Assembly: GCA_049969715.1 (NCBI GenBank) | Contig: JBMFOH010000023.1 | Location: 1 to 26,657, forward strand | Reading direction: 5' to 3' | DNA from: JBMFOH01 sp049969715 [NCBI: bacterium] | Lineage (GTDB): Bacteria; DUMJ01 | Length of the DNA: 26,657 nt | Part shown: in pieces, positions 9,650 to 16,470 of the stretch | How positions within the stretch are numbered: the first letter of the stretch is position 1 | How the letters are laid out: each line of letters starts with the position of its first letter | Notes under the pieces: model-generated | The model's database searches: none | Told to the model about the DNA's origin: nothing | The model's input: the letters and a program-made list of their open reading frames with translations, nothing else | Made by a program: the position numbers and the translations under genes

Positions 9650-9700
9650 GAAGAAGGCAGCATGAAACAATATAAGCTCGCCTTCTTCTTGTAATTTTTC
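9650..9700 (+). terminator. Probable intrinsic terminator after the sugar importer operon
   Basis: GAAGAAGGC (9650-9658) pairs with GCCTTCTTC (9680-9688). An inner AGC/GCT extension lies in the 21-base loop, and TTGTAATTTTTC follows. It lies 62 bp after the permease stop codon and just before the end of the convergent flavo-diiron gene. Confidence 0.5.
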
Positions 9701-10871
9701 AAACAAACTGTCTATGTTTCTCTGCTATTATGTCTGCAAGTCTATCAATAGCCCTTAAGTCTTCTTCTCTAGGAAGCCCCTTTACAAGAACAGGTTCTAA
9801 TATTTCTACCTTTAGATTGGTAAGTATATTCTGTATGTACTCTACTGTCTTTCCTCCCCATCCGTAAGAGCCTATGATAGAGGCATACTTTAGTTTTGGT
9901 CTTAGCACATTGCAAAGGTATGCGGCATACACTACACTAGGATGAGGGCCAGCCAAAACCGTAGGTGTCCCTATTATTATAGTGCCAGCATCAACCAAGC
10001 TCATTGCCAGTTTTCCTAAATCTACTGAGGATAGGTCAAATCTTTCTAAACCCACGTCTCTTTTGGTGAGTGAATCTACTAGATAATCTACCATATGTTT
10101 CGTGCTATCATGCATAGAAATATAGGGTATTACAACTACATTCTTAGGGTTATCTGATATCCAATCCTTATAGGCATTAATTATAAAAGATGGTTCATTA
10201 TAGATTGGACCATGACTTGGGGCGATGATTGATATCTCGTAAGCACCTATCTTCTCTATATTATTCTTTATCGTCGTTCTAAATGGCATCATAATCTCTG
10301 CGTAGTATCTCTTAGCTGATTCATAGACCCTATCCTTATCAGTTGCATAGAGAGAGTTTGTAGCCAGGTGAGAACCGAAAAAGTCACAGGTGAAGAGGAT
10401 CTTGTCCTCTAGCAAATATGTACTCATTGTCTCAGGCCAATGAACCCATGGGGTATATATAAACTTTAACGTCTTATCTCCAAGAGATATGGTATCTCCA
10501 TCTTTTACTGTAATAATTCTCTCCTCCTGAATATTGAGATGGTCTATCAGCATATCCTTTCCCCTAGAAGAGATTATTACCTTAGCTTCTTTGTATTTTT
10601 CAAGAACAAAGGGAAGAGAACCAGAGTGGTCCTGTTCTACATGATGAATCACTATATAATCAATCCTAGTAATATCATTCAGTTGCTCCATAAGTTGGTA
10701 GGTCATTCTTGGATCTACTGTATCTAAAAGCGCTATCCCTTCACTTCCCTTTATGAGATAAGCATTATAGCTTGTGCCATCTGGAAGAGGGATAAGGGAA
10801 TCAAAAAGCCTTCTATCCCAATCTATAGCTGGCAATTCATAAATATTTTCTTTTATCTCTCTTTTTACCAT
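9699..10871 (-). CDS. fprA: Flavo-diiron protein (A-type flavoprotein, FprA/ROO type)
   Basis: 390 residues, normal length for a class A flavo-diiron protein. An N-terminal metallo-beta-lactamase-like domain (about 1-245) carries the di-iron ligands H-x-E-x-D-H (H77, E79, D81, H82), H144 in WVHWPETM, D163 in FTCDFFGSH and H220 in APSHGP. A C-terminal flavodoxin domain (about 246-390) begins VVVIPYISMHDSTKHM and contains GTPTVLAGPHPSVVYAAY and IGSYGWGGKTVE, which bind FMN. The soluble cytoplasmic enzyme reduces O2 to water, or NO to N2O, with electrons from rubredoxin or another carrier; it is a defence enzyme of anaerobes. The phosphate loop differs slightly from the usual SMYGST form (SMHDST). 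Start supported by GGAGGG. It has its own promoter 30 bp upstream, so it is probably independent of the operon above it. Confidence 0.93.
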   Translation of the reverse strand: MVKREIKENIYELPAIDWDRRLFDSLIPLPDGTSYNAYLIKGSEGIALLDTVDPRMTYQLMEQLNDITRIDYIVIHHVEQDHSGSLPFVLEKYKEAKVIISSRGKDMLIDHLNIQEERIITVKDGDTISLGDKTLKFIYTPWVHWPETMSTYLLEDKILFTCDFFGSHLATNSLYATDKDRVYESAKRYYAEIMMPFRTTIKNNIEKIGAYEISIIAPSHGPIYNEPSFIINAYKDWISDNPKNVVVIPYISMHDSTKHMVDYLVDSLTKRDVGLERFDLSSVDLGKLAMSLVDAGTIIIGTPTVLAGPHPSVVYAAYLCNVLRPKLKYASIIGSYGWGGKTVEYIQNILTNLKVEILEPVLVKGLPREEDLRAIDRLADIIAEKHRQFV

Positions 10872-10934: not shown

Positions 10935-12218
10935 CTACTTTTTATCTCTCTTAGAATCCATCTTCTTATATAACTTTATAAATTCTCTCACCAGTGTGGA
11001 ATCTGGTTTGATGTCACTATACCTTATCCCTATATAAATATCTCTCATCTCTTTTATGATATTTTTATTGAAGAAACCTTCTGACTTTTTATATATCTCT
11101 AGGGTAGTATCACTATCTCTAAGTTCTATCCCTTTCCCTTTACAAGCCTGTAGGTATCTTCTGTAATAAAGCCTTATCTTTTCTAAGCTATTTTTAGGTC
11201 TTACTACCGAGAGAAATCTTTCTAAAAGATTTGTTCCCTTTGCTTCTCTAAGGATAAACTCTTTCACTTCAACATAATCTTCCTTCTTTTCCTTCCTATT
11301 GTAAGTATACTTCTGAAATAGCCTTACTATAATATAGAGGACTATGGCTAAAATAATTGTGCCAGCCATAGCTAAAAGTACTCTATCTATCACCCCAGAA
11401 GAACTAGTATTTTTCTCTACCTGTTTCATCAATCCCATTCTACTCCCTATCTTCAAATTTCCTGAAAGAAGTTCTTTATTCTCAAGTCCGTAGATCTTCA
11501 GTTTGAATGTATTTTTTCTCCCTATAATGCCAAATAGAAGCTCAAAGATGTATCCAAACACCCATAAGATACCAGTAAATACAATAGAAATGATTTCAAC
11601 AGACAGGCGAAAGACATATGATATGCCTTTAAATAAAACCCCCCTAACTGGTTCTAGGCTTAAGAGGAAACTAATAGATATAATAGCAGCTGAATACCTT
11701 AGGTTTATCCTATCCATCTCTCTATTTGCTGGATTATATTCTAGATATCTAAGGGTTCTCAACAGTATTATAGATGTTACAAGATACACCATAAAGTAAG
11801 GGAATACCAATCTATTAAAGAGTATAAGTTTAAAAGGAGAGATAATAGAAAGGAGTATAGAGATCGAGATTATTATAACCATAATACGAAGTGCACTCTT
11901 AAATCCATCTATACTTCCCCCATAAGTTATCTTGGTAAGTCCTCTAAAATTTATATATAGGGTGTATAGGTAGGCAATAGAAATAAGAAGCCTATCTGCT
12001 AAACTATTAAAAAAGATAACAGGGATAATCATCATAAGAAAAACTAGGCTACGAAATATCCTATTGTGTAGCCCTTGAGATAGGAGAGAGAGTAATACTA
12101 ATTCGACAAATATCACTTCTCCTGCCGTTATCCTGCCTATAAAACTTAATATGAAATTCAATATACCTATAACGAGAGATATATTACCTATCAGTTTGAG
12201 ATAGCGTATATTCATCAT
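10935..12218 (-). CDS. Polytopic membrane protein with C-terminal DUF4129 domain
   Basis: 427 residues. About eight or nine hydrophobic segments occupy the first 310 residues (e.g. LIGNISLVIGILNFILSFIG, ALRIMVIIISISILLSII, AMAGTIILAIVLYIIVRLF). The last 85 residues are soluble and match DUF4129: LEKIRLYYRRYLQACKGKG, then SDTTLEIYKKSEGF, IYIGIRYSDIKPDS. In many bacteria this domain ends a TgpA-type membrane transglutaminase encoded next to MoxR and DUF58; here no transglutaminase core with Cys-His-Asp is visible between the membrane part and DUF4129, so this is a shortened form. It is the last gene of the moxR operon and overlaps the DUF58 gene by 35 bases, pointing to translational coupling. 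Function in the cell is unknown, probably acting with MoxR at the inner membrane. Confidence 0.75.
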   Translation of the reverse strand: MMNIRYLKLIGNISLVIGILNFILSFIGRITAGEVIFVELVLLSLLSQGLHNRIFRSLVFLMMIIPVIFFNSLADRLLISIAYLYTLYINFRGLTKITYGGSIDGFKSALRIMVIIISISILLSIISPFKLILFNRLVFPYFMVYLVTSIILLRTLRYLEYNPANREMDRINLRYSAAIISISFLLSLEPVRGVLFKGISYVFRLSVEIISIVFTGILWVFGYIFELLFGIIGRKNTFKLKIYGLENKELLSGNLKIGSRMGLMKQVEKNTSSSGVIDRVLLAMAGTIILAIVLYIIVRLFQKYTYNRKEKKEDYVEVKEFILREAKGTNLLERFLSVVRPKNSLEKIRLYYRRYLQACKGKGIELRDSDTTLEIYKKSEGFFNKNIIKEMRDIYIGIRYSDIKPDSTLVREFIKLYKKMDSKRDKK

Positions 12219-13338
12219 CTCTCTTCTCTACATATTTGATTATATTCTCAGAAAGACATTCTAGATTATCCCTACTTAGAGAGATAATTATTACCCTTGT
12301 CATCTCTGAAGCTATAGAGTTTATGAAATCTATATAGGAATCAAGGATCTTAGGAGTTATGATAATATAGGTAGAACAATGAATATCTTTCTTATTCATA
12401 GTTAGAATTAGGTCTTCAAAACTTATACTTATGTTATATGACATCCTACCAAGGTATTCTAAAAGATTATTCAATTGAACCTGACCGGCGGAAGGATATA
12501 TCATATTTCTTTCTGCTGGAAGTCCGCTCATAATTGCATTAGTAATAAAACCATAAGGGATCTTCTTCTCTTCAAGGGTTTCTATTATTCCTCTAGTAAT
12601 AGAGATGCATCTCTCTATATCATCTATGCTCTTTTTATCTAGACCAGACCAGAACGGTTTTACACACTCTATATTTAGGAAGATCATAGTAGTATTCTCC
12701 ATCGTAAAATCGAATTTTCTCACCATAAGGCTATTATGCCTTGCTGAAGAAGGCCAGTGTATAGTCTTTGCTGGTTCTAACCCAGTATATTCTCTTATTC
12801 CTATTATCATAGTAGGGTCATCTATTATCCATCTTTCAACAGATAATTCTCCATTGTAGTCTCCATAAGGTATTATCTCTTCTCTTAGATCTACAGGTTT
12901 TGGCAATGCGATAATCTCTTGCCAATAATCTAAACCTTTAGTAAATGTATTTAAACCAAGGAGGTCTCCTGCTATTAGAGATACATCAGAAAAAATATAT
13001 CTTCCTCTCTTATCGCAATATGCCACATAGGTTCTTTTAATCCTTTGATAGGGAAGAAGAAACATGGTAATCGTATGGTACAGGAACTCTACAGTCTTAA
13101 ATCTGTCTGTCCTAAATCTATACTGAATAGTTGCAGGGAATCTCTCAATAATCTGAAAGAATGTCACTGGCAGCGCCTTTCTGTTCTCTATCACAGTGAC
13201 TATGTCAAAGTCTTCATTTACCTCTACAATCTTCTTAGATATCTCCCTCGAATATCTAACCCCTTTCAATGCATACTTTTTAGAAAGAGAGTTTAACCCT
13301 ATCCCTAGAATAATCAAAAATACCAACACGTATACCAT
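12184..13338 (-). CDS. DUF58 (von Willebrand A-like) protein, MoxR partner
   Basis: 384 residues. One N-terminal hydrophobic segment (MVYVLVFLIILGIGL) anchors it in the membrane. The next 150 residues form a beta-rich domain (VNEDFDIVTVIENRKALPVTFFQIIE, then RGRYIFSDVSLIAGDLLGL). The DUF58 signature is clear: IGIREYTGLEPAKTIHWPSSARHNSLMVRKFDF, followed by TTMIFLNIE, a vWA-like first strand. Such proteins are co-encoded with MoxR ATPases and are thought to act as adaptors. The start lies 5 bases after the moxR stop with GAGGA inside the moxR end. The order MoxR-DUF58-DUF4129 is the classic arrangement. Confidence 0.85.
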   Translation of the reverse strand: MVYVLVFLIILGIGLNSLSKKYALKGVRYSREISKKIVEVNEDFDIVTVIENRKALPVTFFQIIERFPATIQYRFRTDRFKTVEFLYHTITMFLLPYQRIKRTYVAYCDKRGRYIFSDVSLIAGDLLGLNTFTKGLDYWQEIIALPKPVDLREEIIPYGDYNGELSVERWIIDDPTMIIGIREYTGLEPAKTIHWPSSARHNSLMVRKFDFTMENTTMIFLNIECVKPFWSGLDKKSIDDIERCISITRGIIETLEEKKIPYGFITNAIMSGLPAERNMIYPSAGQVQLNNLLEYLGRMSYNISISFEDLILTMNKKDIHCSTYIIITPKILDSYIDFINSIASEMTRVIIISLSRDNLECLSENIIKYVEKRDDEYTLSQTDR

Positions 13339-13343
13339 AAGAT

Positions 13344-14288
13344 TTATAGTTCCTCTACAGGTACTTTTATAGTATCCACCAAAGACTTGATAAATGAATA
13401 TATATTTCTATCCTTACTGATACCCTTAAGAATGACCCTATGATTCAAAACATATGGAGCCATCTCCTTTATATCTTCTGGAATGATGTAATCTCTTCCG
13501 TTTATAGCTGCATATACTTGGCTTGCCTTAAAGAGAGCTATAGTACCTCTTGGGCTTACTCCAAGTTGACTTATATCCATCGTTCGAGTCTTTTCAGCTA
13601 TATCTAGAAGATAGTCCATAACCTCTTTTGTAGCTTTTACCTCACTATAGTTGCTCCTTACGTAGTCTACCTCTTCTTGGGTTATTACCCTATCTATGTT
13701 ATCAAGCATCCTGGGATTTTTATTCCTGTTTACAATCTCTACCTCTTCCTCTCTGGTTGGATATCCAATCTTTATCCTCATAAAAAATCTGTCTAGTTGT
13801 GCCTCTGGAAGAGGAAATGTGCCGTAGGACTCTATAGGATTTTGGGTAGCTAATACCATAAATGGCTCAGGTAGTCTCCTAGTTATTCCGTCTACAGTGA
13901 TCTGCTTTTCTTCCATTGCCTCCAATAAGCTAGACTGAGTCCTTGGGGTTGCTCTATTAATCTCATCAGCTAGTATTATATTGGCAAAGAGTGGTCCTGG
14001 CTTAAATTGAAAGTCTCCTACCTTTTGATTGTAGAAATTTATCCCAGTAAGGTCAGAAGGTAGAAGGTCAGGAGTAAATTGAATCCTCTTAAAGTCGTAT
14101 CCTATACTCCTAGCGAAAGCCTTAACAAGCATTGTTTTGCCTAATCCTGGGACATCCTCCAACAAAATATGTCCCCCGCATATAAAAGAGACAATCACAA
14201 GATCAATCACATCCCCCTTACCTACTATTACCTTTGACACATTATCTTTAATCTTATCTCTAAAATTCAAAAATACATCTAGATTCAT
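13344..14288 (-). CDS. MoxR-family AAA+ ATPase
   Basis: 314 residues, usual MoxR length. Walker A is EDVPGLGKTML (about 44-54), followed by RIQFTPDLLPSDLTG, the MoxR hallmark. Walker B is IILADEINR (104-112), sensor 1 is ATQNP (about 147-151), the arginine finger lies in LDRFFM (R167), and sensor 2 is in GVSPRGTIALFKAS. The C-terminal lid domain contains the IIPEDIKEMAPYVLNHRV segment. MoxR ATPases are chaperone-like, helping metal or cofactor loading or complex assembly with vWA partners. It is the first gene of the operon. Start supported by AGGAGGG at 14294-14300 with 5-base spacing. Its 106-base leader contains what appears to be a fluoride riboswitch, so expression should rise when fluoride is present. 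Confidence 0.93.
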   Translation of the reverse strand: MNLDVFLNFRDKIKDNVSKVIVGKGDVIDLVIVSFICGGHILLEDVPGLGKTMLVKAFARSIGYDFKRIQFTPDLLPSDLTGINFYNQKVGDFQFKPGPLFANIILADEINRATPRTQSSLLEAMEEKQITVDGITRRLPEPFMVLATQNPIESYGTFPLPEAQLDRFFMRIKIGYPTREEEVEIVNRNKNPRMLDNIDRVITQEEVDYVRSNYSEVKATKEVMDYLLDIAEKTRTMDISQLGVSPRGTIALFKASQVYAAINGRDYIIPEDIKEMAPYVLNHRVILKGISKDRNIYSFIKSLVDTIKVPVEEL

Positions 14289-14311
14289 TCTTTCCCTCCT
14301 AATAAACCAAA

Positions 14312-14345
14312 ATAGCTCCTACAGAGGCTATTCTGTAGGAGCTAT
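14312..14345 (-). terminator. Intrinsic terminator / expression platform of the fluoride riboswitch
   Basis: A perfect 13-bp stem, ATAGCTCCTACAG with CTGTAGGAGCTAT (14312-14324 and 14333-14345), and an 8-base loop. Read on the minus strand it is followed by UUUGGUUUAUU and then the moxR ribosome-binding site. Its 5' arm contains AGCUCC, the strand that the aptamer needs for its pseudoknot, so aptamer folding and the terminator exclude each other. The U-tract is interrupted by GG, so termination may be incomplete. Confidence 0.8.
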
Positions 14346-14394
14346 CAGCCATAACCGGCTACTATAATCTTCTTTAAGACGAGCTCCATCGTCT
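14333..14394 (-). promoter_or_regulatory. Fluoride riboswitch (crcB motif) upstream of moxR
   Basis: On the minus strand the RNA begins AGACGAUGGAGCUCGUCU. P1 is AGACG/CGUCU, and the loop between holds AUGGAGCU. Downstream come UAAAG, a small stem AGCC-GGUUAU-GGCU, and GGCUGAUAGCUCCUACAG. Loop bases GGAGCU are fully complementary to AGCUCC, giving the 6-bp pseudoknot that closes the fluoride site; CUGAU...CUCCUAC and GAUGG are conserved marks of the crcB motif. The arrangement matches, from memory, known examples from Bacillus cereus and Thermotoga petrophila. Two deviations: UAAAG replaces the usual UAAAC, and about 11 extra bases (AAGAUUAUAGU) precede the last stem. Predicted action: fluoride stabilises the pseudoknot, the terminator cannot form, and moxR is transcribed. 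Confidence 0.87.
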
Positions 14395-14400
14395 GTAAAA

Positions 14401-14429
14401 ATAATACACTTCTTAAAGATAATTGTCAA
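14401..14429 (-). promoter_or_regulatory. Strong promoter of the moxR operon
   Basis: On the minus strand TTGACA (14424-14429), exactly 17 bp, TATTAT (14401-14406). The expected start point, seven bases past the -10 box, is A14394, the first base of the riboswitch P1 helix. Confidence 0.85.
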
Positions 14430-14691: not shown

Positions 14692-16470
14692 GTGAAATAT
14701 CTAATTAGACTAGTGAAGATAGCTAGACCATATTGGAAATATCTAGTAATTGCAGGAATTAGTGCATTGGCTATAACAGGGATAAACCTTCTGGGACCTT
14801 GGCTTATAAGGCAGCTTATTGACATCATTACAAACTTACATCAATATCCTGATCCAAGAAGATATATAATGAGGCTCTCTATTCTCCTTACCCTTTCATA
14901 CATAGCAAGGGTTCTATTTCAGTTTCTAAGCAACTATCTAGCTCACTATGCTGCCTGGCATTTAGTTGCTTATATGCGAGGTTTGGTATACGATAAACTC
15001 CAACAGTTATCTTTCAGATATTTCCAGGAAAGACAAACAGGACAGATTATGTCGAGAGTAATAAATGATACCGCTAATTTTGAATCATTAATCGCTCATG
15101 CGGTCCCTGACCTCTTTACCAATATTCTTATAATACTTGGAGTGGCTATTATACTATTCTTGGTAAATCCGACCTTGGCATTCTTATCTCTAATACCTAT
15201 TCCTTTTCTGGTATATGGTGGCACAACCTTTGCAAAACGCATCCTTCCTAACTTTAGAGAGGCACAGAGAGTACTTGCAGATTTAAATGCCGCGCTTCAG
15301 GATAATATCTCCGGTATCCGTGAGATTCAATTATTCAATCAACAGAAGAGAGAGTTAGATAAGATTAATAATAAGGTTTATAAACATACCTCTGCCCTTC
15401 TCAATGCTTTAAAATTGAGCGCCATATTCCATCCTACTGTAAGCTTTTTGAGCTCAATAGGAACAGTAGCTGTCGTCTCTGTAGGAGGGTTTATGGCTCT
15501 ACACGGGAAGATCTCTGTAGGGGATATAGTAGGTTTTATCCTCTATCTTAGTATGTTCTATCAACCGGTGACAGCGCTTAGTCAGGTAATAGAAAATGTA
15601 CAGCAGGCTCTAGCTGGCGCTGAGAGAGTCTTCGAGGTATTAGAGACAGAATCAGAAATTAAAGAAAAACCAAATGCGATTGAGCTCAAAAATGTTAGAG
15701 GGAAGGTAACGTTTGAAGATGTAAGTTTTTCATACAATGAAGGTATACCAATTTTAAAGAATATCTCATTTAACGTGGAACCTGGGCAGATGGTTGCCTT
15801 TGTTGGACCCACTGGAGTTGGAAAGACAACAATAATGTCTCTATTGGTTCGTTTCTTTGACCCAGATTCAGGAAGTATAAAGATAGATGATATAGATATT
15901 AGAGAGGTTACCTTAAAATCACTCCATGACAACATAAGCGTAGTAATGCAAGACGTGTTCTTATTTGACGGGACCATAACAGAAAATATTGCCTATGGGA
16001 AAGAGGATGCTACTATAGACGAGATAATAAATGCTGCAAAGATTGCCTGTGCTCATGACTTTATTATGGAACTCTCTGATGGATACAATACACATATAGG
16101 GGAAAGAGGAGTTAAGCTCTCAGGTGGACAGAAACAGAGATTAGCAATTGCTAGGGCAATCTTAAAAAATGCCCCTATCTTAGTCTTCGATGAAGCTACC
16201 TCCTCTGTTGATACAGAAACAGAAACTAAGATTCAACAGGCAATAAATAATCTGGCAGGAAAAAGGACAATCTTTATTATAGCTCATAGATTGTCTACTG
16301 TAAAACGGGCAGACAAGATCATCGTATTAAAAGAAGGAGAAATAGTAGAAGAGGGAACACACGAAGAGCTCCTCGCTCTAAAGGAACTATACTACCATCT
16401 ATGTTCTGTTCAATTTATAGAACAAGAGTTGTATAATGCTAATAAGGTAGAAGCCTTAGAAGAAACCTAA
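14692..16470 (+). CDS. ABC exporter, fused permease-ATPase (MsbA/BmrA-like)
   Basis: 592 residues, standard half-transporter. The N-terminal domain (about 1-310) has six membrane helices. The nucleotide-binding domain has Walker A VGPTGVGKTT (371-380), Q-loop VVMQD (Q420), signature LSGGQKQRLAIARA (476-489), Walker B ILVFDEA (496-502) and the switch histidine in IIAHRLST. It works as a homodimer or with a partner half elsewhere, exporting lipids, drugs or peptides; the substrate is unknown. Start at GTG 14692, eight bases after AAAGGGG; the protein begins directly in the first cytoplasmic helix. It is divergent from the moxR operon and shares its regulatory gap. A single exporter without a paired second half nearby favours a homodimer. 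Confidence 0.92.
   Translation: MKYLIRLVKIARPYWKYLVIAGISALAITGINLLGPWLIRQLIDIITNLHQYPDPRRYIMRLSILLTLSYIARVLFQFLSNYLAHYAAWHLVAYMRGLVYDKLQQLSFRYFQERQTGQIMSRVINDTANFESLIAHAVPDLFTNILIILGVAIILFLVNPTLAFLSLIPIPFLVYGGTTFAKRILPNFREAQRVLADLNAALQDNISGIREIQLFNQQKRELDKINNKVYKHTSALLNALKLSAIFHPTVSFLSSIGTVAVVSVGGFMALHGKISVGDIVGFILYLSMFYQPVTALSQVIENVQQALAGAERVFEVLETESEIKEKPNAIELKNVRGKVTFEDVSFSYNEGIPILKNISFNVEPGQMVAFVGPTGVGKTTIMSLLVRFFDPDSGSIKIDDIDIREVTLKSLHDNISVVMQDVFLFDGTITENIAYGKEDATIDEIINAAKIACAHDFIMELSDGYNTHIGERGVKLSGGQKQRLAIARAILKNAPILVFDEATSSVDTETETKIQQAINNLAGKRTIFIIAHRLSTVKRADKIIVLKEGEIVEEGTHEELLALKELYYHLCSVQFIEQELYNANKVEALEET

What the first reader, a model, noticed from the sequence alone, without database searches (positions are those of the whole stretch)
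14312..14394. Fluoride riboswitch controlling a MoxR-DUF58-DUF4129 operon instead of a fluoride exporter
Seen: on the minus strand a crcB-motif aptamer (P1 AGACG/CGUCU, AUGG loop, perfect 6-bp GGAGCU/AGCUCC pseudoknot, CUGAU...CUCCUAC) stands in the leader of moxR, followed by a terminator stem. Known: fluoride riboswitches usually control crcB/fluc, eriC-F/CLC-F and some fluoride-sensitive enzymes. No crcB-like or CLC-like gene lies in the window. Inference: this chaperone-type ATPase operon with a polytopic membrane protein is part of the fluoride response, perhaps repairing metalloenzymes or complexes hit by fluoride-metal inhibition, or acting at the membrane. I do not recall this pairing being described.
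Basis: partly seen in the sequence, partly recalled or inferred. Interest (0 to 1): 0.93.

Follow-up and report, generated by a model that had tools for sequence, protein, structure and literature searches.

The report
Fluoride riboswitch controlling a MoxR operon
A fluoride-sensing RNA switch sits in front of a three-gene operon for a membrane-tethered molecular machine (a MoxR ATPase and two partners), and the same pairing recurs in several other bacterial lineages, which points to a fluoride-response component that we could not find described.

Summary
Window 14394-14311 (minus) carries a complete fluoride riboswitch: RF01734 30.3 bits (gathering score 34; E 7.9e-7), and 44.9 bits, E 2.3e-10, with a model trained on other fluoride aptamers. 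It begins just after a predicted promoter; its covarying 6-bp pseudoknot shares a strand with a terminator, the layout of an ON switch. Downstream lie moxR, a DUF58-like gene and a polytopic DUF4129-type membrane gene.

The pairing recurs: 6 of 80 related moxR loci have the switch in the leader, a seventh lies behind a switch-led membrane pyrophosphatase gene, and one more came from another scan. Hosts are Caloramator and a relative, Desulfosporosinus, a Thermoanaerobacteraceae MAG and a three-genome phylum. Several of these genomes have further fluoride switches before crcB, MutS-like, dynamin-like or MFS genes, so the operon belongs to a fluoride regulon and does not replace an exporter.

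What the operon does is inferred: a membrane AAA+ complex protecting fluoride-sensitive membrane proteins. A pyrophosphatase-only role is not supported. Fluoride binding is untested. The held literature does not describe the pairing; Baker 2012 was not held.

The parts
14401..14429 (-). predicted sigma-70-type promoter TTGACA-17-TATTAT just upstream of the aptamer
   Evidence: 11 of 12 consensus matches; 4 promoter-like sites found in the stretch against a mean of 2.2 in shuffles, so on its own not evidence
14329..14402 (-). fluoride riboswitch aptamer (RF01734), P1 at 14394-14390/14381-14377, 6-bp pseudoknot, P3, 14-base insert between P1 and P3
   Evidence: RF01734 30.3 bits E 7.9e-7; independent CM R1 44.9 bits E 2.3e-10; pseudoknot covariation in relatives
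14311..14346 (-). predicted intrinsic terminator (15-bp stem, 6-nt loop, T-rich tail) whose 5' arm contains the 3' strand of the pseudoknot AGCUCC: expression platform
13344..14288 (-). moxR, AAA+ ATPase, 314 aa, ATG preceded by AGGAGG
   Evidence: PF07726 E 2.5e-64, PF17863 E 2.8e-21; leader sequence
12184..13338 (-). DUF58-like protein, 384 aa: N-terminal hydrophobic helix, Ig-like domain, degenerate vWA-like domain
   Evidence: DUF58 E 0.0028, below cut-off; 23 of 40 aligned members match DUF58 at E<=0.1, best 0.0015; AF2 model pLDDT 81.7; vWA of Rpn10 (8pfd_B) Z 10.1 over residues 212-374
10935..12218 (-). polytopic helical, probably membrane protein with DUF4129-like region, 427 aa; overlaps the preceding gene by 35 nt
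   Evidence: no Pfam hit itself; 12 of 38 aligned members match DUF4129 at E<=0.1, best 5.6e-7; helical model pLDDT 78.0
9699..10871 (-). flavodiiron (ODP/flavorubredoxin-like) protein; possible read-through, association not conserved
   Evidence: PF19583 E 3.4e-28; 63-nt gap without a predicted terminator; no tblastn match in any of the 80 loci as held

Best explanation
A transcriptional ON-type fluoride riboswitch controls moxR-DUF58-DUF4129. SHOWN by sequence: the aptamer follows a predicted promoter, and its pseudoknot strand AGCUCC is also part of the 5' arm of a terminator, so the two folds exclude each other. INFERRED from the family: Mg-fluoride binding locks the pseudoknot, blocks the terminator and lets RNA polymerase read into moxR. 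SHOWN: the same arrangement stands before related operons in several lineages, and in several of those genomes other fluoride switches lead crcB, MutS-like, dynamin-like, MFS or DUF6062 genes, so the operon belongs to a fluoride regulon. INFERRED: the products form a membrane-tethered AAA+ machine (a cytosolic MoxR ring recruited by the membrane-anchored vWA-like DUF58 protein and a polytopic DUF4129-type scaffold) that remodels membrane proteins or complexes damaged or stalled under fluoride and HF stress. Confidence: regulation by a fluoride riboswitch about 0.9; fluoride-regulon membership about 0.9; the membrane-remodelling job about 0.4.
For: RF01734 and independent CM scores. Direct moxR leaders: RF01734 41.6 (L001), 45.9 (L002), 45.1 (L008), 39.9 (L017) and 40.7 bits (L183), over the gathering score; 32.0 (L004) and 23.3 (L012) below it. 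Pseudoknot: 66 of 66 cells paired in 11 aptamers, 3 of its 6 pairs with changes on both sides; 98.2% of all cells paired against at most 54.8% when partners are slid. A terminator hairpin follows the aptamer in the window and in L001, L002, L004, L008, L012, L017, L183. In the family of G012 (Desulfosporosinus; 45 held genomes) the operon is known in 2, G012 and G013, and a search of the other 43 found none at E<=1e-30; both lie among many fluoride switches (14 and 8 matches; gene order). G147: five separate switches, before moxR, crcB-crcB-DUF190, MFS, dynamin-like and MutS-like genes. L013: switch, membrane pyrophosphatase, moxR, DUF58, ORF3, then a second switch and crcB-DUF190.
Against: The window aptamer is under Rfam's gathering score. 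Fluoride binding is untested. 73 of 80 related moxR loci show no fluoride switch in or near the leader (in six of the 80 under 450 bases upstream of moxR are held, so one could be missed there), and the window's close relatives L003 and L005 have none at E<=0.01 in their whole genomes. So the operon's function cannot be fluoride-specific everywhere. On the tree the label needs at least 4 changes. I found no biochemical data for this subfamily, the vWA MIDAS looks degenerate, and ORF3 had no PDB fold match at E<=0.001.
Confidence: 0.75

Rival explanations
1. The operon maintains the cell envelope or membrane proteins in general, and fluoride control reflects envelope or acid (HF) stress; it does not act on fluoride-poisoned enzymes.
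For: The related operon is common without a fluoride switch (73 of 80 loci). Both partners look like membrane proteins. Some other genes behind fluoride switches may also be membrane-related: dynamin-like GTPases and a gene resembling a cyclopropane-fatty-acid synthase, by sequence reading only.
Against: It does not by itself explain why the same operon joins MutS-like, enolase (by reading) and pyrophosphatase genes in fluoride islands.
Confidence: 0.35
2. The machine is a dedicated assembly or repair factor for the fluoride-sensitive membrane pyrophosphatase.
For: L013 has switch - membrane pyrophosphatase - moxR - DUF58 - ORF3 in one run. H_PPase is found in 38 of 39 genomes with the close operon against 18 of 48 genomes without it.
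Against: G012 has the switch-led operon but no H_PPase found. Only 18 of 45 genomes with the more distant operon have it. H_PPase is common anyway: 12 of 20 genomes drawn across G008's class, and 17 of 18 further genomes of its phylum (the first listed), in which the operon was not sought or not found at the strict cut. Kinship confounds the contrast.
Confidence: 0.1
3. The aptamer is a diverged RF01734 relative with another ligand.
For: Score under the gathering threshold in the window, L004 and L012; the AACC stretch of the Rfam consensus is not kept in the window, L002, L004 and L017.
Against: That stretch also varies in other fluoride aptamers. The loop, pseudoknot, UGAU (UAAU in L004) and UAC/UGC elements are kept in the moxR leaders; L001, L002, L008, L017 and L183 pass the gathering score; neighbours in the islands include crcB.
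Confidence: 0.04
4. The moxR operon was placed behind a mobile fluoride switch by rearrangement, with no functional meaning.
For: Patchy distribution (at least 4 label changes) and island-like context in Desulfosporosinus.
Against: Recurrence in Caloramator and a relative, Desulfosporosinus, the Thermoanaerobacteraceae MAG and the window's lineage, with pseudoknot sequence diverged but pairing kept.
Confidence: 0.05

Closest known systems
Fluoride riboswitch (crcB motif, RF01734), as in Weinberg 2010 (PMC2864571, passages) and PMC7266159 (passages)
   Same: P1, AUG loop, 6-bp pseudoknot, P3, UGAU...UAC, terminator overlapping the aptamer
   Different: 14-base insert between P1 and P3 in the window; stands before a MoxR operon, a gene class not named in the passages read (mutS, K+/Cl- transport, formate hydrogen lyase; exporters, Na+/H+ antiporters, pyrophosphatase, HAD, enolase, chorismate mutase in PMC11139923)
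CbbQO Rubisco activase (MoxR AAA+ with vWA adaptor CbbO; PMC5385338, passages)
   Same: MoxR ATPase plus vWA-containing partner; repairs an inhibited enzyme
   Different: CbbO has a typical MIDAS, and no counterpart of ORF3 is named in the passages read; the DUF58 protein here has a hydrophobic N-terminal helix and a degenerate MIDAS, and its client is unknown
NorQD (MoxR AAA+ with vWA; PMC13036017, abstract)
   Same: MoxR-like ATPase and vWA partner acting on a target protein
   Different: NorQD serves metal insertion into nitric oxide reductase; here neither target nor metal insertion is known
MoxR-DUF58-DUF4129/transglutaminase operons (recalled, from no call)
   Same: gene order and domain kinds
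   Different: here a compact three-gene form; no transglutaminase was noticed behind ORF3 in 34 loci (judged from the first 70 residues of the next ORFs, two loci showing none; no profile search)

Membership tests
Fluoride riboswitch RF01734 | covariance-model score at or above gathering (34 bits) | tested here: not met
   window 30.3 bits, E 7.9e-7; met by the moxR leaders L001, L002, L008, L017, L183; the window is therefore filed as a below-threshold homologue
Fluoride riboswitch RF01734 | P1 and loop-to-3' pseudoknot with covariation | tested here: met
   pseudoknot 66 of 66 cells paired, 3 pairs changed on both sides; P1 95.5% of cells
Fluoride riboswitch RF01734 | match to other fluoride aptamers in an independent model | tested here: met
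   R1 44.9 bits, E 2.3e-10
Fluoride riboswitch RF01734 | expression platform overlapping the aptamer | tested here: met
   terminator 14346-14311 shares AGCUCC
Fluoride riboswitch RF01734 | fluoride binding | not testable with these tools
   needs in-line probing
MoxR AAA+ ATPases | AAA_3 domain and lid | tested here: met
   PF07726 E 2.5e-64, PF17863 E 2.8e-21
DUF58 | PF01882 above its cut-off (23.4 bits) | tested here: not met
   window protein 17.3 bits; 23 of 40 aligned members match at E<=0.1, best 0.0015; vWA-like fold at 212-374: called DUF58-like only
DUF4129 | PF13559 match | tested here: inconclusive
   no hit in the window protein at E<=1; 12 of 38 aligned members at E<=0.1, best 5.6e-7
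MoxR-vWA pairs of the CbbQO kind | MIDAS (DxSxS, motif recalled) in the vWA domain | tested here: not met
   by reading alignment A3: the first vWA strand ends LNIEC in the window; N222 invariant in 40 rows

The most novel reading that the evidence does not exclude
A fluoride-induced membrane AAA+ 'activase': the MoxR-DUF58-DUF4129 complex uses ATP to pull fluoride-metal-phosphate dead-end inhibitors out of membrane phosphohydrolases or other membrane complexes, the fluoride counterpart of CbbQO action on Rubisco, and so forms a repair arm of the fluoride response beside export.
Probability: 0.15. Interest if true: 0.85.

Novelty: new variant of a known kind. Interest (0 to 1): 0.64.

Why it matters
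MoxR-DUF58-DUF4129 operons are common, and their function is mostly unknown (recalled). A fluoride switch in front of one gives a specific inducer and a phenotype with which to test the function. It also widens the fluoride response from exporters and spare enzymes to a chaperone-type machine, and the same genomes point to further candidates (dynamin-like GTPases, DUF6062, an MFS family, a NifU-like/GGGtGRT pair).

Tried and rejected
Membrane pyrophosphatase as the sole client: tested by co-occurrence. 38 of 39 genomes with the close operon have H_PPase, but G012 with a switch-led operon has none found, only 18 of 45 with the distant operon have it, 18 of 48 without the operon have it, and base rates are high among relatives (12 of 20 and 17 of 18), so the link is not supported. 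For the 45 'distant' genomes the presence of the DUF58 gene rests on tblastn; in L064 it is cut by the contig end. Some H_PPase matches are fragments at contig ends.

The ODP flavodiiron gene as an operon member: no tblastn match in any of the 80 loci as held; left as possible read-through.

A second switch directly before moxR in L013 (4800-4852): 13.5 bits, E 1.1; it looks like a decayed copy with a hairpin and was not counted. L013 was labelled fluoride-linked in the tree because its operon lies behind a switch-led pyrophosphatase gene; a common transcript is not shown.

Fold search of ORF3 gave no PDB match at E<=0.001. For the DUF58-like protein the second look ranked Ig-like domains first and the vWA match (8pfd_B) at rank 20.

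The sample of 398 genomes of G008's phylum used a strict cut (E<=1e-135) and scored at most five candidates a genome in the rows shown: 2 matches, G004 and G008. G008 is the centre of the sample and so present by construction; both are switch-led. More distant operons there were not counted. The same search in the phylum of G002 covers only 3 genomes; G144, the third, has no match but has a switch-led DUF6062-crcB.

Rows dropped: L047 and L055 from the DUF58 alignment because their stretch holds a stop; L010 from it because its frame began late. The alignments use 40 of 80 (DUF58) and 38 of 58 (ORF3) relatives listed. The 80 loci are the best 80 of 449 relatives; in six of them (L024, L060, L062, L067, L072, L078) under 450 bases upstream of moxR are held. 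R1 was trained on 24 aptamers: 22 of the 51 distinct hits over the gathering score, and two below it (L130, L131). Left out were the moxR leaders, the GGGAAUGAAG-type aptamers with a longer linker, near-copies and others. No moxR homologue was found in the loci of the 24, but L102's contig ends about 200 bases downstream. Ten or so training rows come from genomes that also have a fluoride-linked moxR.

Gene names without a profile search: crcB (by reading and tblastn to each other), enolase, cyclopropane-synthase-like and the L113 NifU-like gene (by reading).

Literature: searches. PMC5030485 holds both terms, but the passages read treat them separately. Baker et al. 2012 is not held, so its gene list was not checked; no supplement was read. 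Seen only as passages: PMC2864571, PMC11139923, PMC7266159, PMC5385338, PMC13273304; as abstract and outline: PMC13036017. The Thermotoga petrophila aptamer and the conserved core that I used in my reasoning are recalled, from no call.

Full report
WHAT WAS CHECKED. The leader of moxR on the minus strand was read and compared with Rfam. At the curated threshold no family is found in the window. With the leader alone and permissive filters RF01734 matches 14402-14329 end to end (model 1-64 of 64) at 30.3 bits, E 7.9e-7; the gathering score is 34 and the next family scores E 0.62. I therefore built a covariance model, R1, from 24 fluoride aptamers of relatives in whose loci no moxR homologue was found. 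Over the window and 80 moxR loci (782,719 bases) it ranks the window aptamer third, 44.9 bits and E 2.3e-10. The ten accepted matches have E<=0.0015 and the best remaining one is E 0.18. A strict motif occurs once in the window, both strands scanned, and not at all in 150 Markov windows, one strand each.

ANATOMY. A TTGACA-17-TATTAT promoter-like site ends at 14401, a few bases before P1 at 14394. P1 is AGACG/CGUCU. The loop GGAGCU can pair with AGCUCC 3' of UGAU. UUAA follows P1 and about 14 further bases precede P3 (GCC/GGC). AGCUCC is also part of the 15-bp stem of a terminator at 14346-14311. AGGAGG and the moxR start at 14288 follow. Pseudoknot and terminator therefore exclude each other, the known logic of transcriptional fluoride ON switches (PMC2864571 passage; PMC13273304 passages).

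CONSERVATION. Related moxR loci were fetched from one genome per species (best 80 of 449 relatives). Direct leaders with the aptamer: L001, L002, L004, L008, L012 and L017, i.e. 6 of 80; in six other loci under 450 bases upstream of moxR are held, so this is a lower bound. In L013 the aptamer precedes a membrane pyrophosphatase whose next gene is moxR, and a second one precedes crcB. A further direct case, L183 in genome G147, came from a family-level scan. RF01734 scores: 41.6, 45.9, 45.1, 39.9 and 40.7 bits for L001, L002, L008, L017 and L183; 32.0 for L004; 23.3 for L012; 30.2 for the L013 pyrophosphatase leader. In 11 aptamers of these loci (including one before crcB and one before a MutS-like gene) the pseudoknot is paired in 66 of 66 cells, and 3 of its 6 pairs change on both sides. 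P1 is 95.5% paired. Sliding partners by 1-3 columns drops overall pairing from 98.2% to at most 54.8%. Further pair types were fewer than in the shuffles (9 against a mean of 11.1), the one measure that did not exceed them. The alignment was fitted to a model with P1 and P3 but without the pseudoknot, so P1 counts lean towards the structure and pseudoknot counts do not.

PHYLOGENETIC PATTERN. In a tree of 81 MoxR proteins all 8 fluoride-linked rows lie in one 36-row group and need at least 4 changes of label; 0 of 500 shuffles were as low. Some close relatives (L003, L005) have no match at E<=0.01 in their genomes. In the family of G012 (45 held genomes) the operon is known in two, G012 and G013, both Desulfosporosinus; a search of the other 43 found none at E<=1e-30. 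Both are rich in fluoride switches: 14 and 8 matches. In a sample of 398 genomes of G008's phylum only G004 and the centre G008 itself have a moxR at E<=1e-135, both switch-led. The window's nearest relatives G001 and G002 lie in a phylum represented by three held genomes.

THE REGULON. Relatives with the moxR switch carry other fluoride switches: DUF6062 followed by crcB (G002 L155; in G001 L154 crcB matches over 73 residues, with no ORF of 100 aa listed), a HEAT/zinc-ribbon gene and an MFS transporter (G001 L153), and in G147 crcB-crcB-DUF190, MFS, dynamin-like and MutS-like genes. In the Desulfosporosinus islands the moxR operon lies beside MutS-like genes, an enolase (by reading), DUF190, a NifU-like/GGGtGRT pair and, in G013, crcB and a membrane pyrophosphatase; not each of these has a switch of its own. 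G004 shows only the moxR switch.

THE PROTEINS. MoxR is a clear AAA+ ATPase. The second gene is DUF58-like: 17.3 bits against a cut-off of 23.4; 23 of 40 aligned members match at E<=0.1. Its model (mean pLDDT 81.7) has an N-terminal hydrophobic helix, an Ig-like domain (residues 25-148) and a vWA-like domain (212-374, Rpn10 vWA Z 10.1, rmsd 3.6, 148 residues). The stretch around 161-212 is of low confidence. The position where vWA domains carry DxSxS (recalled) reads LNIEC, so metal-ion binding of the usual kind is unlikely (alignment). The third protein is polytopic by its helical model (pLDDT 78.0) and joins DUF4129 only through relatives: 12 of 38 match at E<=0.1, best 5.6e-7. No PDB fold matched at E<=0.001. 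The three genes are closely packed: a 5-nt gap, then a 35-nt overlap.

HOW IT MOST LIKELY WORKS. Fluoride binds the nascent leader with Mg, the pseudoknot forms, the terminator does not, and the operon is transcribed. That step is inferred from the family. The protein step is inference: a cytosolic MoxR ring recruited to the membrane by the DUF58-like and DUF4129-type proteins, remodelling membrane proteins stalled or damaged under fluoride. CbbQO shows that a MoxR/vWA pair can repair an inhibited enzyme (PMC5385338 passages), and NorQD that such pairs act on nitric oxide reductase (PMC13036017 abstract; that this is a membrane enzyme is recalled). The degenerate MIDAS is a difference from CbbO. 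A pyrophosphatase-only role was tested by co-occurrence and is not supported.

NOVELTY. The riboswitch is an ordinary member of its kind in structure; its target is what is new. Searches for fluoride riboswitch with MoxR, and MoxR with crcB, each returned only one paper, whose passages treat the two separately. MoxR has no occurrence in the main text of the held review of fluoride resistance, of the review of former orphan riboswitches, of Weinberg 2010 or of the 2026 study of 1901 fluoride riboswitches. Baker et al. 2012 could not be read and no supplements were read, so absence from those gene lists is not claimed.

Noticed in passing
L086, L107, L127, L181; also L097/L150 3775-5547: Dynamin-like GTPases stand behind fluoride riboswitches in Caloramator relatives and in Desulfosporosinus and its kin (PF00350 E 4.5e-27 for L151 6304-8094; others by tblastn).
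   Followed up: partly
L155 3827-4837, L170, L154: Fluoride switch followed by a DUF6062 (CPxC-type) gene and crcB; a weaker DUF6062 match also lies in the Desulfosporosinus island (L149 7772-8365, 26.1 bits against a cut-off of 27), and a short DUF6062-like gene, by reading only, in L168.
   Followed up: partly
L153 3401-4492, L174, L160, L149 6157-7368: One MFS transporter family, 61-69% identical between the three-genome phylum, a Caloramator relative and Desulfosporosinus, is switch-led or lies in fluoride islands; a candidate fluoride-response transporter perhaps shared by gene transfer.
   Followed up: partly
L148 9458-11199; L113: A NifU-like gene (weak PF01592 match, with the GGGtGRT gene behind it in L148) follows a fluoride switch in Desulfosporosinus; a protein similar to it by reading follows one in a Faecalibacterium MAG.
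   Followed up: no
G001, G002, G144: The window's closest relatives by MoxR (G001, G002) lie in a phylum of only three held genomes; the window may come from a poorly sampled lineage near it.
   Followed up: no
L047 5947-7050, L055 5947-7116, L188: The DUF58-like gene has an in-frame stop in two Caloramator genomes and in G154, suggesting decay of the operon, an imprecise frame end on my side, or assembly error.
   Followed up: no
window 14692-16470 (+): An MsbA-like ABC exporter is divergently transcribed from the moxR leader; no accepted fluoride aptamer was found on its side.
   Followed up: no
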